A stretch of 64,000 nt of DNA from contig NZ_SZQA01000020.1 of assembly GCF_005233835.1 (NCBI RefSeq), positions 1 to 64,000 on the forward strand. Reading direction: 5' to 3'. The notes under the pieces were generated by a model. It searched no databases. It was given only the letters and a program-made list of their open reading frames with translations, and was not told the origin of the DNA. Positions within the stretch are counted from its first letter, which is position 1, and each line of letters opens with the position of its first letter. Source of the DNA: Herbidospora galbida. Lineage in GTDB: Bacteria > Actinomycetota > Actinomycetes > Streptosporangiales > Streptosporangiaceae. A program made the position numbers and the translations under genes. This document shows, in pieces, positions 59,801-64,000 of this stretch.

Positions 59801-60382
59801 TCATCGAGAGGTTTGATCAGGTGAGAAGACACACGCCAGCGCGCGCCGGATGACGTCGGCGAACGGCCGGTTCGCGGCCGGGGCCAGCCAGTTCCTCCCG
59901 GCGACCCTGATCGCGGCGACCACGGCCGCCGCCGTGACCTCGGGCCGCAGCCCGGTCTCGCCGGTGCGTTCGGCGATCGCCTCGGCGAGCGAGGCCTCCC
60001 CCACGCTGAAGGCGCGCAGCGCCTCGCCCTCCAGTTCGGGGGTCAGCATGATCATGCGCAGCCCGGCCCGGTCGGGCTCGGGGTCGGTGAACAGCCCGAC
60101 CATCGCCTCGGTCACGGCCACGTCGAGCGGTTCGCCGGCGGGCCGGGCGCGCAGCGCGTCGCCCGCGCGCCGCGACTGGTCGGCGTGCCCGCCGCAGATG
60201 GCCTCTTCCCTGCTGGAGAAGTAGTTGTTGTACGTCCGGGGCGACACCCCGGCCGCCGAGGCGATGTCGTTGACGCGGACGAGAGCCAGGCCGCTGGGGC
60301 CCTGTTCGACGGCCAGGCGCAGCGCGGCAGTGGTGATCGCCTCGCGGGTGGCCTGCCGGTTGCGGGCCCTCAGGTCGGTCAT
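59801..60382 (-). CDS. TetR-family regulator
   Basis: A 193-residue TetR protein: HTH VRVNDIASAAGVSPRTYNNYFSSREEAICGG, then a helical sensor domain ending FADVIRRALACVF. ATG 60382 overlaps the stop of the TIM-barrel gene upstream (ATGA), so the two are one operon. The likely operator is the large palindrome at 61405, which would let it control its own operon and the divergent PKS gene. Confidence 0.9.
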   Translation of the reverse strand: MTDLRARNRQATREAITTAALRLAVEQGPSGLALVRVNDIASAAGVSPRTYNNYFSSREEAICGGHADQSRRAGDALRARPAGEPLDVAVTEAMVGLFTDPEPDRAGLRMIMLTPELEGEALRAFSVGEASLAEAIAERTGETGLRPEVTAAAVVAAIRVAGRNWLAPAANRPFADVIRRALACVFSPDQTSR

Positions 60383-61383
60383 GACGGCAGCATATTCATG
60401 CGCCCGTAGACGTCGGCGAGGGCGGCGAAGGACGCCTTCGGCTCCCACCCGGCCCGGTCGCCCAGCACCTTCACCACACCCGGGCTCGCGACGTCGAAGC
60501 CGCCCGGCAGGTCCCACCGCGCGAAGGTGTACCAGAACGCCGCGTCGACCCCCTCACCGTCGAGGATCGCCAGCACCTCACGCAGGTAGCGGGCCTGCTC
60601 CTCCTCGTCGCGCACGACCTCCCGCGTCAGCCGGGCGGCCGGGCCGCGGTCGCTCCACTCGACGACCGAGTCGCCGCGCTCCCCCGCGTCGGCCGCGCCC
60701 CGGTAGGTCACGCAGCCGAACTCGTTGACCGAGACGGGCCTGCCCAGCGCCCTCCCCTGCTCGACCAGGGCCGAGACCGTCTCCCGGTAGGTCGCGGCGG
60801 TGGCCGCCGACCGGTATCCCGCGTCGGTGGCGACGATGTCGAAGATCGTCCAGTCGACCCGCTCGAACGGCAGCGACGAGTAGGTGACGCGGCCCCCGAA
60901 CCGTGCCCGCACCAGCGCGACCGCCTCGGCGAGGAACGCGTTCACCTTGTCCGGCACGTCGGCGATCCCCTCGCCCAGCCGGGGCAGCCGCTCGCGCAGC
61001 GTCTCCCCGGGCAGGAAGCCGGTGGTCATCATGCTCACCTCCGACCCGGTGACCATGACCACCTCGGCGCCGTCGAGCCGCAGCCGCTCGGCGTGCTCGG
61101 CGCAGTCGGCGATCACCGCGAGCAGTTCGCCGACGGTGAGGTCGCAGGTGAAGGGGGACAGCCAGACCTCCAGCCCGGCCTGGGCGGCGGCGGTGGCGGC
61201 GGCCTTCAGCCGGTCGGGATACTGCCCGCTGATCCGGACCGCCGTGCAGTGCAGGTCGTCGCGGATGACCCGCATGTCGCGGGCGACCTCGGCGAGGTCG
61301 AAGGGCTCGTGGGTGCTGTGCCCGGCGGCGCGGGCGTAGACGTCGGCGAAGCCGGTGTCGTAGTTGATGCCTTTGGTGCGCAT
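60379..61383 (-). CDS. TIM-barrel glycosidase-like protein of unknown function
   Basis: A 334-residue cytoplasmic protein. It begins MRTKGINYDTGFADVYARA; strand-like segments and Glu/Asp-bearing ends of a (beta/alpha)8 barrel are visible (CTAVRISGQYPDRL, LEVWLSPFTCDLT, EVVMVTGSEVSMM, WTIFDIVATDAGYR, PVSVNEFGCVTYRG, AAFWYTFARWDLPGG). The Glu in VNEFG resembles a glycosidase nucleophile. Actinomycete homologues are, from memory, sometimes labelled abortive-infection proteins without clear proof. It is co-transcribed with a TetR gene behind a strong palindrome. Confidence 0.75.
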   Translation of the reverse strand: MRTKGINYDTGFADVYARAAGHSTHEPFDLAEVARDMRVIRDDLHCTAVRISGQYPDRLKAAATAAAQAGLEVWLSPFTCDLTVGELLAVIADCAEHAERLRLDGAEVVMVTGSEVSMMTTGFLPGETLRERLPRLGEGIADVPDKVNAFLAEAVALVRARFGGRVTYSSLPFERVDWTIFDIVATDAGYRSAATAATYRETVSALVEQGRALGRPVSVNEFGCVTYRGAADAGERGDSVVEWSDRGPAARLTREVVRDEEEQARYLREVLAILDGEGVDAAFWYTFARWDLPGGFDVASPGVVKVLGDRAGWEPKASFAALADVYGRMNMLPS

Positions 61384-61404
61384 GCCGCCGAACCTACCAA
61401 TAAC

Positions 61405-61437
61405 TTGCGCGTCACGCACTATATGCGTGACGCGCAA
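61405..61437. promoter_or_regulatory. Large perfect palindrome between the TIM-barrel/TetR operon and the PKS gene
   Basis: TTGCGCGTCACGCA (61405-61418) and TGCGTGACGCGCAA (61424-61437): 14-bp arms around CTATA. Each arm contains a GCGTnACGC sub-palindrome, centres about 19 bp apart, so two repressor dimers could bind. It lies 22 bp from the TIM-barrel start and 55 bp from the PKS start. Confidence 0.82.
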
Positions 61438-61491: not shown

Positions 61492-64000
61492 ATGCTGCTT
61501 GATGTGCTGCTGGGGGCGGCCGACGACGCGCCGGACCAGGTCGTCGTGCACGTGCGCGGCGACGGGACCGAGCGGGTCGTCACCCACGCCGAACTGCGCG
61601 ACCAGGCGTTGCGCGTGGCGGGCGCGCTGTTACGGGAGGGCATCCCCCCGGGCACCCCGATTCCGCTGGTCGCCGACCGGAGCGAGGACTTCCAGCCGCT
61701 CTTCTGGGGGCTGGTCGCGGCCGGGCTCGTGCCCGTCCCGCTGGCCCCCGATCCGCGCCGGGTCCGGCCGGTGTGGGAGTTCCTCGGCCGCCCGCCGACG
61801 GTGGCCGACGAGCCGCCGATCCCGGAGGCGCGGGCGCTCTCCCCCGCCGCCCTGCTTCGGGGGGAGAAGGCCACCGAGTTGCCGGTACGGTCACCGCACG
61901 ACCTGGCCTTCCTCCAGTTCTCCTCCGGCAGCACCGGAGACCCGAAGGGCGTCGAGCTCACCCACGCGGCCGTCGTGGCGAACCTGGCGCAGATCCGGGC
62001 CGCCGCCGCGATCACCCCCGACGACGTCTCGGTCAGCTGGATGCCCTACTTCCACGACATGGGGCTCATCGGCACCCATCTCGCGCCGCTGGCGGCCCGG
62101 ATCAAACAGGTGAAGCTGGCGCCGCTGGCCTTCGCGAAGCGCCCCGCCGTGTGGCTGGAAACGGCCGCGCGGCACCGGGCGACCGTGCTGACGGCGGCCA
62201 ACTTCGCGCTGGCGCTGGTCGAGCGGCGGGTGCCCGACGAGGTGATCGCCCGGCTCGACCTGTCGAGCGTGCGGCTGATCCTGGTCGGCGCGGAGCCGAT
62301 CTCGCCGCGCGTCTGGCGGGCGTTCCTGGCCAAGACCGGGCTGCCGCCGCACGTGCCGCAGCCGGTCTACGGGCTGGCCGAGGCGACGCTCGCGGTGACC
62401 GTGCCGCCGCCGGGCGCCACGGCCGAACCGCTGGTGCTCGACCGGCGGGCGCTGGCCGAGGGCCGGGTCGAGTTCACCGCGGCCGGTCCGCACGCGGTCG
62501 AGTTCATGGACGTCGGCCCGCCGGTGCCGGGCTGCGAGGTCCGCATCGCCGGAGACGACCGGGTCGGGCCGATCCAGGTGCGGGGGCCCCAGGTCGCCCG
62601 CGGCTACCACCGCGCCGCGCCGTTCGGCGACTGGCTCGACACCGGTGACCTGGGGTTCCTGCACGAGGGCCGGTTGTGCGTGACCGGCCGGGCCAAGGAC
62701 GTCGTGTTCGTCAACGGCGCCACCTTCCACGCCGCCGACCTGGAGGAGGTCGCGGCGGGGGCCGTGCAGGGCCCGGTGGCGGTCGTCGGCTCGTCGGGGC
62801 CCGAGGGCGAGCGGGTCGTGGTGTTCGTCCGGGCGCCCGCGCCGGCCGGGGTCGTCGCCGAGGTGTGGCGGCGGGTCGCCGAGGCGTGCGGGCACGACGA
62901 CGTGGGCGTGGTGACGGTGCCGTCGACGGCGTTCGCCCGGACGACCAGCGGGAAGCTGCGGCGTTCGGTGCTGCGGGCCCGGTTCGAGGCCGGGGAGTTC
63001 AGCCCGGCCCCGCGCTCCCGGGCCGACGTCGAGGCGGCCGTCGCGGCGATCTGGGCCGACGTGCTCGGCGTCGAGGCCGTCGGGCCGTACGACCGGTTCG
63101 CCGCGCTGGGCGGGTCGTCGCTCAAGGCCATGCAGGTCCTGGCCGCCGTCGAGGACCGGTTCGGGGTGACGCTGCGTCCCTCGGACGTCCGCGACCACGA
63201 CACCGTCGCCGCCCTCGCGGCCCACCTGCTGGCCCCGCCCGCCCACGAACGAGCCTCGGTGCGCGGTGCCGGTGGGTCGCCGGTCGCGATCACCGGGATG
63301 GCCTGCCGGTTCCCCGGCGCCGACACCCCCGAGCGGTTCTGGGAGCGGCTCGACGGCGGCCACGACGCCATCGCCCGCATCACCCGCTTCGACCACCCCG
63401 GCCACGGCGGCTTCCTCGACGACCCGGCCCTGTTCGACGCGCGCTTCTTCGGGCTGTCCGACGAGGAGGCCGCCGCGACCGACCCCCAGGCCCGGCTCCT
63501 GCTCGAACTCGCCCACGAGGCGCTCGAACGGGCGGGCTACGCGGGCTCCCGCCGCCACGGCCGAAGGGTCGGCGTGTTCGCCGCCGCCGGAGAGAGCGGC
63601 TACCGGGAGATCCTGGAGGCCGCCCACGGCGCGACGGGGCTCCCGGCCGAGGCGCTGACCGGGAACCTGCCGAACCTGCTCGCCGCCCGCGTCGCCCACA
63701 CGCTCGACCTGACCGGCCCGGCGCTGGCCGTCGACACGGCCTGCTCGTCGGCGCTGGTTGCCCTCCACCTGGCCCGGCGCAGCCTCCAGCAGGGCGAATG
63801 CGACCTCGCGGTGGTGGCGGGGGTCAACCTCACCCTCACCCCGGCCGGATACCGGGCCCTCGGGAAGACCCAGGCGCTCTCCCCGACCGGGCGGTGCCGC
63901 GCGTTCGGCGCGGCGGCCGACGGGTTCGTGCCCGGCGAGGGCGGCGCGGCGCTGGTGCTGGCCCGGCTCGACGACGCGGAACGCTCCGGTGACACCGTCC
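61492..64000 (+). CDS. Type I polyketide synthase with FAAL loading domain (partial, FAAL-ACP-KS)
   Basis: The frame is open from ATG 61492 to the right edge (836 codons seen). Residues 1 to about 500 are an acyl-AMP ligase of the FAAL class: LQFSSGSTGDPKGVELTH, SWMPYFHDMGLIGTHL, VYGLAEATLAV, WLDTGDLGFLHEGRLCVTGRAKDVVFVNGATFHAADLE. About 505-590 is a carrier protein with the phosphopantetheine Ser S543 in LGGSSLKAMQVL. A ketosynthase starts at about 596 (VAITGMACRFPG), with active-site C751 in VDTACSSALVALH and GRCRAFGAAADGFVPGEGGAALVL before the edge. It should adenylate a free fatty or aryl acid, load it on its ACP and extend it. Codon 47 is TTA. Confidence 0.92.
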   Translation, partial: MLLDVLLGAADDAPDQVVVHVRGDGTERVVTHAELRDQALRVAGALLREGIPPGTPIPLVADRSEDFQPLFWGLVAAGLVPVPLAPDPRRVRPVWEFLGRPPTVADEPPIPEARALSPAALLRGEKATELPVRSPHDLAFLQFSSGSTGDPKGVELTHAAVVANLAQIRAAAAITPDDVSVSWMPYFHDMGLIGTHLAPLAARIKQVKLAPLAFAKRPAVWLETAARHRATVLTAANFALALVERRVPDEVIARLDLSSVRLILVGAEPISPRVWRAFLAKTGLPPHVPQPVYGLAEATLAVTVPPPGATAEPLVLDRRALAEGRVEFTAAGPHAVEFMDVGPPVPGCEVRIAGDDRVGPIQVRGPQVARGYHRAAPFGDWLDTGDLGFLHEGRLCVTGRAKDVVFVNGATFHAADLEEVAAGAVQGPVAVVGSSGPEGERVVVFVRAPAPAGVVAEVWRRVAEACGHDDVGVVTVPSTAFARTTSGKLRRSVLRARFEAGEFSPAPRSRADVEAAVAAIWADVLGVEAVGPYDRFAALGGSSLKAMQVLAAVEDRFGVTLRPSDVRDHDTVAALAAHLLAPPAHERASVRGAGGSPVAITGMACRFPGADTPERFWERLDGGHDAIARITRFDHPGHGGFLDDPALFDARFFGLSDEEAAATDPQARLLLELAHEALERAGYAGSRRHGRRVGVFAAAGESGYREILEAAHGATGLPAEALTGNLPNLLAARVAHTLDLTGPALAVDTACSSALVALHLARRSLQQGECDLAVVAGVNLTLTPAGYRALGKTQALSPTGRCRAFGAAADGFVPGEGGAALVLARLDDAERSGDTV

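What the first reader, a model, noticed from the sequence alone, without database searches (positions are those of the whole stretch)
61492..64000. Start of a FAAL-ACP-KS polyketide synthase cluster cut by the window edge
The first visible domains activate a free carboxylic acid through an AMP-ligase, load it on an ACP and hand it to a KS. This starter chemistry gives lipid-tailed or aryl-primed polyketides. A TTA at codon 47 hints at late, developmental expression. The rest of the cluster lies to the right.
Basis: partly seen in the sequence, partly recalled or inferred. Interest (0 to 1): 0.6.

Follow-up and report, generated by a model that had tools for sequence, protein, structure and literature searches.

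The report
Single-gene lipopeptide synthase, predicted aldehyde release
The window ends inside one very large gene that, read to its end in the same genome, looks like a complete one-gene assembly line that joins a fatty acid, a two-carbon unit and one amino acid and probably releases the product as an aldehyde through a release domain that the standard domain library does not list.

Summary
In detail: a frame starts at 61492 and encodes FAAL-ACP-KS up to the window edge. In the same contig it continues to 72036 (3514 aa): FAAL-ACP-KS-AT-KR-ACP-C-A-PCP-C-reductase. The "cluster" appears to be this one gene: its neighbours are not kept across genera. It is in 7 of 7 held genomes of the genus (Herbidospora, inferred) and, judged by frame length only, in 57 of 392 genomes of a second genus, probably Streptomyces. 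The interesting part lies outside the window. The last ~300 aa match no Pfam family and not the usual NRPS reductase PF07993. They are related to the PigE reductase model, to AAR-like stand-alone proteins and to a solved domain, 9e4x, with a Cys kept in 13 of 13 full-length proteins; the AAR model itself does not match directly. Best reading: a one-gene synthase releasing an N-(3-hydroxyacyl)-amino aldehyde. TTA codon 47 is not conserved. The product, the amino acid and the role of a second C domain before the reductase are unknown. New variant of a known kind.

The parts
61492..63003 (+). FAAL-type AMP ligase domain (aa 1-504); starter activation
   Evidence: NCBIfam best match PRK09192 fatty acyl-AMP ligase, 299 bits, below its whole-protein cut-off of 600; PDB matches 6ulw, 3pbk (fatty acyl-adenylate ligase), 3kxw, McyG, FadD32
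63004..63261 (+). ACP1 (aa about 506-590), LGGSSL attachment serine
   Evidence: Pfam PP-binding, 3 stretches in the whole protein; attachment Ser in 13 of 13
63271..64000 (+). KS domain, cut by the window edge. The same gene goes on with the rest of KS, then AT, KR, ACP, C, A, PCP, C and AAR-like reductase up to the stop at C30:72036
   Evidence: Pfam ketoacyl-synt 9.3e-74; Cys, His, His motifs in 13 of 13; continuation read
61630..61632 (+). TTA codon 47
   Evidence: not at this codon in any of 8 relatives
61405..61437 (+). perfect inverted repeat, 14-base arms, 5-base spacer, between the divergent gene and the synthase; possible operator, more likely of the divergent gene
   Evidence: 1 match, 0 in 100 shuffles; outer arms kept by eye in four relatives, absent in two; the script found no inverted repeat at its threshold in those four

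Best explanation
One gene, C30:61492-72036, encodes a whole assembly line. The FAAL adenylates a free fatty acid and loads ACP1. The KS extends it once with the unit chosen by the AT (AFHS motif, recalled as malonyl-type). The KR reduces it to a 3-hydroxyacyl chain on ACP2. The first C domain joins it to one amino acid activated by the A domain on the PCP. The C-terminal AAR-like domain takes the chain from the PCP onto Cys3469 and reduces the thioester with NAD(P)H, releasing an N-(3-hydroxyacyl)-amino aldehyde. Shown by sequence: domain order, conservation of active sites, relation of the reductase to the AAR/PigE group. Inferred: chain type, malonyl use, aldehyde as the released form, role of Cys3469. 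Unknown: the amino acid (pocket code DARSIVLINK by recalled numbering, matching no code I can recall) and what the second C domain does.
For: Domain order. FAAL rather than CoA ligase by model scores and by 48 residues from YG to xGxP against 27 in the amino-acid A domain of the same protein. Catalytic residues of KS, AT, KR (Ser, Tyr, Asn), ACPs, PCP, second C (HHxxxDG), the dinucleotide motif and the Cys kept in 13 of 13 full-length proteins. Reductase: 9e4x 3.5e-30 and 4ppm 1.4e-10 (4ppm is named Aminotransferase, recalled as PigE), profile 1.4e-38 and 3e-13, NCBIfam PigE 4.8e-17. Four stand-alone relatives scanned match both TIGR04058 (1.5e-37 to 5.5e-19) and PigE, and their C-x-x-E-T aligns with C-R-L-E-S here. 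Published for the group: acyl transfer to AAR Cys294 and PigE Cys296 (PMC8341465, passages); SeAAR C294 and PtTamH C887 (PMC9594044, passages). The genome has three phosphopantetheinyl-transferase-family matches.
Against: TIGR04058 does not match the domain directly (E up to 1; genome at 0.001), nor a homologue from genus g70 (L048). In the profile alignment 9e4x has no Cys at this column; its nearest Cys is four residues earlier. A relative in another genus (L032) lacks the Cys. The single-sequence fold was useless (mean pLDDT 40.3), so no structural test was made. The second C domain is unexplained. None of the 25 ligase models shown reached its curated cut-off. One homologue (G207) differs in the ligase P-loop, and the first His of HHxxxDG in the first C domain is Ser in the 7 Herbidospora.
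Confidence: 0.66

Rival explanations
1. The second C domain does the release: it condenses the PCP-bound chain with a free amine or alcohol, or closes a ring with the 3-hydroxyl, and the AAR-like domain acts before, after or not at all.
For: HHxxxDG of the second C domain is kept in 13 of 13 proteins and no A-PCP follows it; an A-PCP-reductase protein without a Pfam C domain between exists elsewhere (L032).
Against: The domain is short (about 330 aa by my reading) and most PDB matches cover only its first half. The reductase keeps its dinucleotide motif and Cys in 13 of 13, not expected of an idle domain.
Confidence: 0.15
2. The reductase works by four electrons and the product is a lipoamino alcohol.
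For: NRPS terminal reductases are said to do both two- and four-electron release (PMC12403116, passage).
Against: Passages on the AAR/PigE/TamH group describe aldehydes (PMC8341465 and PMC9594044).
Confidence: 0.12
3. The starter ligase takes an aryl or other short acid rather than a fatty acid.
For: The top PDB matches (6ulw, 6ulx) are named amino acid adenylation domain-containing protein, slightly ahead of the fatty acyl-adenylate ligase 3pbk.
Against: The best NCBIfam model is a fatty acyl-AMP ligase. Of 23 PDB sequences matched at 1e-20, 6 are named AMP or adenylate ligases of fatty acids, 5 are named acyl-CoA synthase or CoA ligase (FadD32/FadD28 type, recalled as FAALs), 5 are linear gramicidin synthase, 7 bear other names. 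The pocket was not modelled.
Confidence: 0.2

Closest known systems
S. fungicidicus TXX3120 plasmid p1 CNQ36_RS32950 (annotated NRPS/type I PKS, 3925 aa)
   Same: Same set of Pfam domains, same active sites and a related reductase; stands among unrelated genes
   Different: About 53% identical; no product given in the annotation
PigE / PtTamH thioester reductase domains (prodigiosin, tambjamine)
   Same: AAR-type reductase with a catalytic Cys acting on carrier-bound thioesters (PMC8341465 and PMC9594044, passages)
   Different: There fused to an aminotransferase; here the terminal domain of a PKS-NRPS
Domain in PDB 9e4x/9e4s (amino acid adenylation domain protein)
   Same: Closest solved relative by sequence, by its name part of an NRPS
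   Different: Cys not at the same aligned column; organism and paper not found
FAAL-primed PKS-NRPS lipopeptide starters (such as MycA, recalled)
   Same: FAAL-ACP-KS-AT start followed by an NRPS module
   Different: Here complete in one gene with its own release domain
Classical NRPS terminal reductase (PF07993)
   Same: Same expected chemistry
   Different: No PF07993 match at E up to 1

Membership tests
Fatty acyl-AMP ligase (FAAL) | Best match to FAAL rather than CoA-ligase models | tested here: met
   PRK09192 299 bits first; PRK07768, named CoA ligase, 281 bits second; all 25 shown below curated cut-offs. No tree made
Fatty acyl-AMP ligase (FAAL) | FAAL-type insertion after the YGLAE motif (feature recalled) | tested here: met
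   48 residues from YG to xGxP against 27 in the amino-acid A domain of the same protein; aligned with that stretch of 3pbk
Fatty acyl-AMP ligase (FAAL) | Transfers acyl-AMP to ACP, not CoA | not testable with these tools
   needs an assay
Type I PKS module (KS-AT-KR-ACP) | All domains with active-site residues | tested here: met
NRPS module (C-A-PCP) | C with catalytic His and Asp-Gly, A, PCP with Ser | tested here: met
   first His of HHxxxDG in the first C is Ser in all 7 Herbidospora, the second His is kept
NRPS terminal reductase (TD/R, PF07993) | PF07993 match | tested here: not met
   Pfam at E up to 1: no match
Long-chain acyl-ACP reductase (TIGR04058) | Direct match to the family model | tested here: not met
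   No match at E up to 1 for the domain, none at 0.001 in the genome; called AAR-like only
Long-chain acyl-ACP reductase (TIGR04058) | Cys and dinucleotide motif at aligned places | tested here: met
   Alignment with stand-alone proteins, four of which were scanned and match TIGR04058; no cyanobacterial AAR sequence itself was aligned
PigE/TamH-type thioester reductase | Sequence match to PigE | tested here: met
   NCBIfam PigE 4.8e-17, reductase part only, 61.6 bits against a whole-protein cut-off of 850
Multi-gene biosynthetic cluster | Further genes nearby, shared with relatives in other genera | tested here: not met
   9 neighbourhoods: no family in all nine. FecCD importer genes lay within 20 kb in 3 of 8 genomes but in 0 of 11 others

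The most novel reading that the evidence does not exclude
A widespread, chemically unassigned family of one-gene lipopeptide-aldehyde synthases in actinomycetes, in which an AAR-type, Cys-dependent reductase fused behind an orphan C domain replaces the usual PF07993-type reductase: a release route for PKS-NRPS assembly lines that Pfam does not list.
Probability: 0.5. Interest if true: 0.62.

Novelty: new variant of a known kind. Interest (0 to 1): 0.45.

Why it matters
Lipopeptide aldehydes are reactive and often inhibit proteases (recalled). A single gene that may make one, present in all 7 held Herbidospora genomes and by frame length in 57 of 392 sampled genomes of a second genus, is easy to express and test. 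It also carries a release domain that Pfam does not list, so such lines may be annotated as having no release step.

Tried and rejected
A larger cluster to the right was looked for and rejected. One search compared 249 flank proteins picked by composition in nine genomes (own, G109, G149, G009, G207, G403, G424, G457, S. fungicidicus), up to 20 kb a side, less for G109, G457 and S. fungicidicus. The widest family, ABC ATPases by my reading, was in 6 of 9. An aldo/keto-reductase-like family (my reading) was in 4 of 9, not in the window. One search repeated this with all 1732 stop-to-stop frames of at least 100 aa. Between genera the window shared ABC ATPases, the divergent gene (with G207) and two frames (with G403). 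G009 and G207 share a peptide-type ABC transporter (PF00496, PF00528), adjoining the synthase in G207 and about 11-16 kb away in G009.

A siderophore link was tested because G207, G403 and G457 had FecCD or Peripla_BP_2 genes nearby. FecCD matches lie within 20 kb of the synthase in 3 of 8 genomes. In 11 other genomes of g70, chosen before looking, the count is 0 of 11 (synthase places). Rejected as chance.

The palindrome at 61405-61437 as operator of the synthase: missing in G109 and G149, which keep the synthase. TTA as a developmental switch: not conserved. Structure: one AlphaFold job without alignment gave mean pLDDT 40.3; no fold search was run and the second job was not used. The A-domain pocket code led nowhere.

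Ten paper searches gave no paper that from its listing describes this synthase. Several lists were cut (25 of 2,270; 20 of 98; 15 of 18; 12 of 13), and the library lacks most subscription papers. Four papers were seen in passages only.

Full report
It starts at ATG 61492 and is open to the window edge. The window is C30:1-64000 of an 8.31-Mb, 116-contig genome, and contig 30 is 150,076 bases long. Reading on, the frame stops at 72036, 3514 aa in all.

Pfam gives AMP ligase, ACP, KS, AT, KR, ACP, C, A, PCP, C. The last 300 aa or so have no Pfam family; the best match at E up to 1 is 0.14. The first ligase scores best with a fatty acyl-AMP ligase model (299 bits) ahead of one named CoA ligase (281 bits), and none of the 25 models shown reaches its cut-off. 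The closest solved sequences are 6ulw and 6ulx (no FAAL name), then 3pbk, a fatty acyl-adenylate ligase. From YG to xGxP it has 48 residues against 27 in the amino-acid A domain of the same protein. No tree was made.

The C-terminal domain matches 9e4x, 9e4s (3.5e-30, 4.5e-30) and 4ppm (1.4e-10; named Aminotransferase, recalled as PigE) by phmmer, and with a nine-sequence profile 1.4e-38, 1.6e-38 and 3e-13. NCBIfam gives PigE at 4.8e-17 but not AAR TIGR04058 (none in the genome). Four stand-alone relatives scanned match TIGR04058 at 1.5e-37, 7.2e-27, 5.5e-19 and 8.9e-35, and PigE more strongly; the g70 homologue L048 matches PigE (1e-12) but not TIGR04058. In a 13-row alignment the Cys and a Glu three residues on are nearly invariant, with L032 lacking the Cys. 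A C-x-x-E-T/S/A motif occurs somewhere in 29 of 30 proteins tested, L032 being the miss. In published passages the acyl group goes first to Cys294 of AAR and Cys296 is conserved in PigE (PMC8341465), with C294 in SeAAR and C887 in PtTamH (PMC9594044). Against this, 9e4x has no Cys at the aligned column.

Thirteen full-length proteins (the window's, six more Herbidospora, two other members of the family, three of genus g70, and S. fungicidicus) were aligned; for the last four the start codon was not defined. Kept in 13 of 13: the attachment serines, KS Cys and His, AT Ser, KR Ser-Tyr-Asn, second C HHxxxDG, the dinucleotide motif and the Cys. Two departures: the ligase P-loop of G207 reads GSTE, and the first His of HHxxxDG in the first C domain is Ser in the 7 Herbidospora and His in the other 6. 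The A-domain pocket reads DARS[IV][VL]L[IV]N in 13 of 13, by recalled numbering, the final K being that of the TGK motif.

Distribution: 7 of 7 genus genomes have the ligase and the reductase. In the family sample 10 of 297 genomes match the reductase. In the order 14 of 345 match: 10 lie in frames of 3501 aa or more and 4, all genus g37, in frames of 1554-1974 aa. In the phylum sample 49 of 396 match, 4 of them in frames over 3800 aa including the window's own. In genus g70 73 of 392 match; 57 lie in frames of 3700 aa or more, and the other 16 are shorter (counted twice from its table). Domains were checked in three of these 57 only. That g70 is Streptomyces is inferred from the named S. fungicidicus homologue and genome sizes.

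One gene, not a cluster: in S. fungicidicus the gene lies between a WGR-domain gene and a TerB gene. Neighbourhoods of nine genomes share no family throughout. The four Herbidospora not in that comparison share the window's neighbours, as expected of close species. Results that looked like links were a peptide-type transporter shared by G009 and G207, an aldo/keto-reductase-like family in 4 of 9 neighbourhoods, not the window's, and FecCD importer genes within 20 kb in 3 of 8 genomes. The last was tested on 11 further genomes and found in 0. Regulator and neighbour families in the window's contig are; the hydrolase-like protein there matches PETase below its cut-off.

The rest makes it more interesting than the front suggested, through its release domain, but the logic is that of known assembly lines and no product is shown.

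Noticed in passing
61405-61437: Perfect 14-base inverted repeat between the divergent gene and the synthase, near a TetR gene (59801-60517, minus strand); the 25-base core occurs at one place in the genome at up to 3 mismatches.
   Followed up: partly
60379-61437, minus strand: 352-aa protein without Pfam match, found with the TetR gene also in G109 and G149, and a relative (about 38% identical) near the synthase in G207.
   Followed up: no
L019:6078-7277 (first C domain): First His of HHxxxDG is Ser in 7 of 7 Herbidospora, His in 6 of 6 other homologues.
   Followed up: no
L032:1-2619: Another NRPS of the same bacterial family (A-PCP then AAR-like domain, no Pfam C domain between), lacking the Cys.
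   Followed up: partly
L077:11566-12855: Hypothetical protein related to the reductase, beside NRPS, KS and luciferase-like monooxygenase genes on a Pantoea stewartii plasmid.
   Followed up: no
L050-L075: Stand-alone AAR-like proteins of about 280-430 aa in genomes of the same phylum, many of them small.
   Followed up: partly
L082:1685-5274 and L084:3619-9171: Peptide-type ABC transporter genes near the synthase in two genera, G207 and G009.
   Followed up: no
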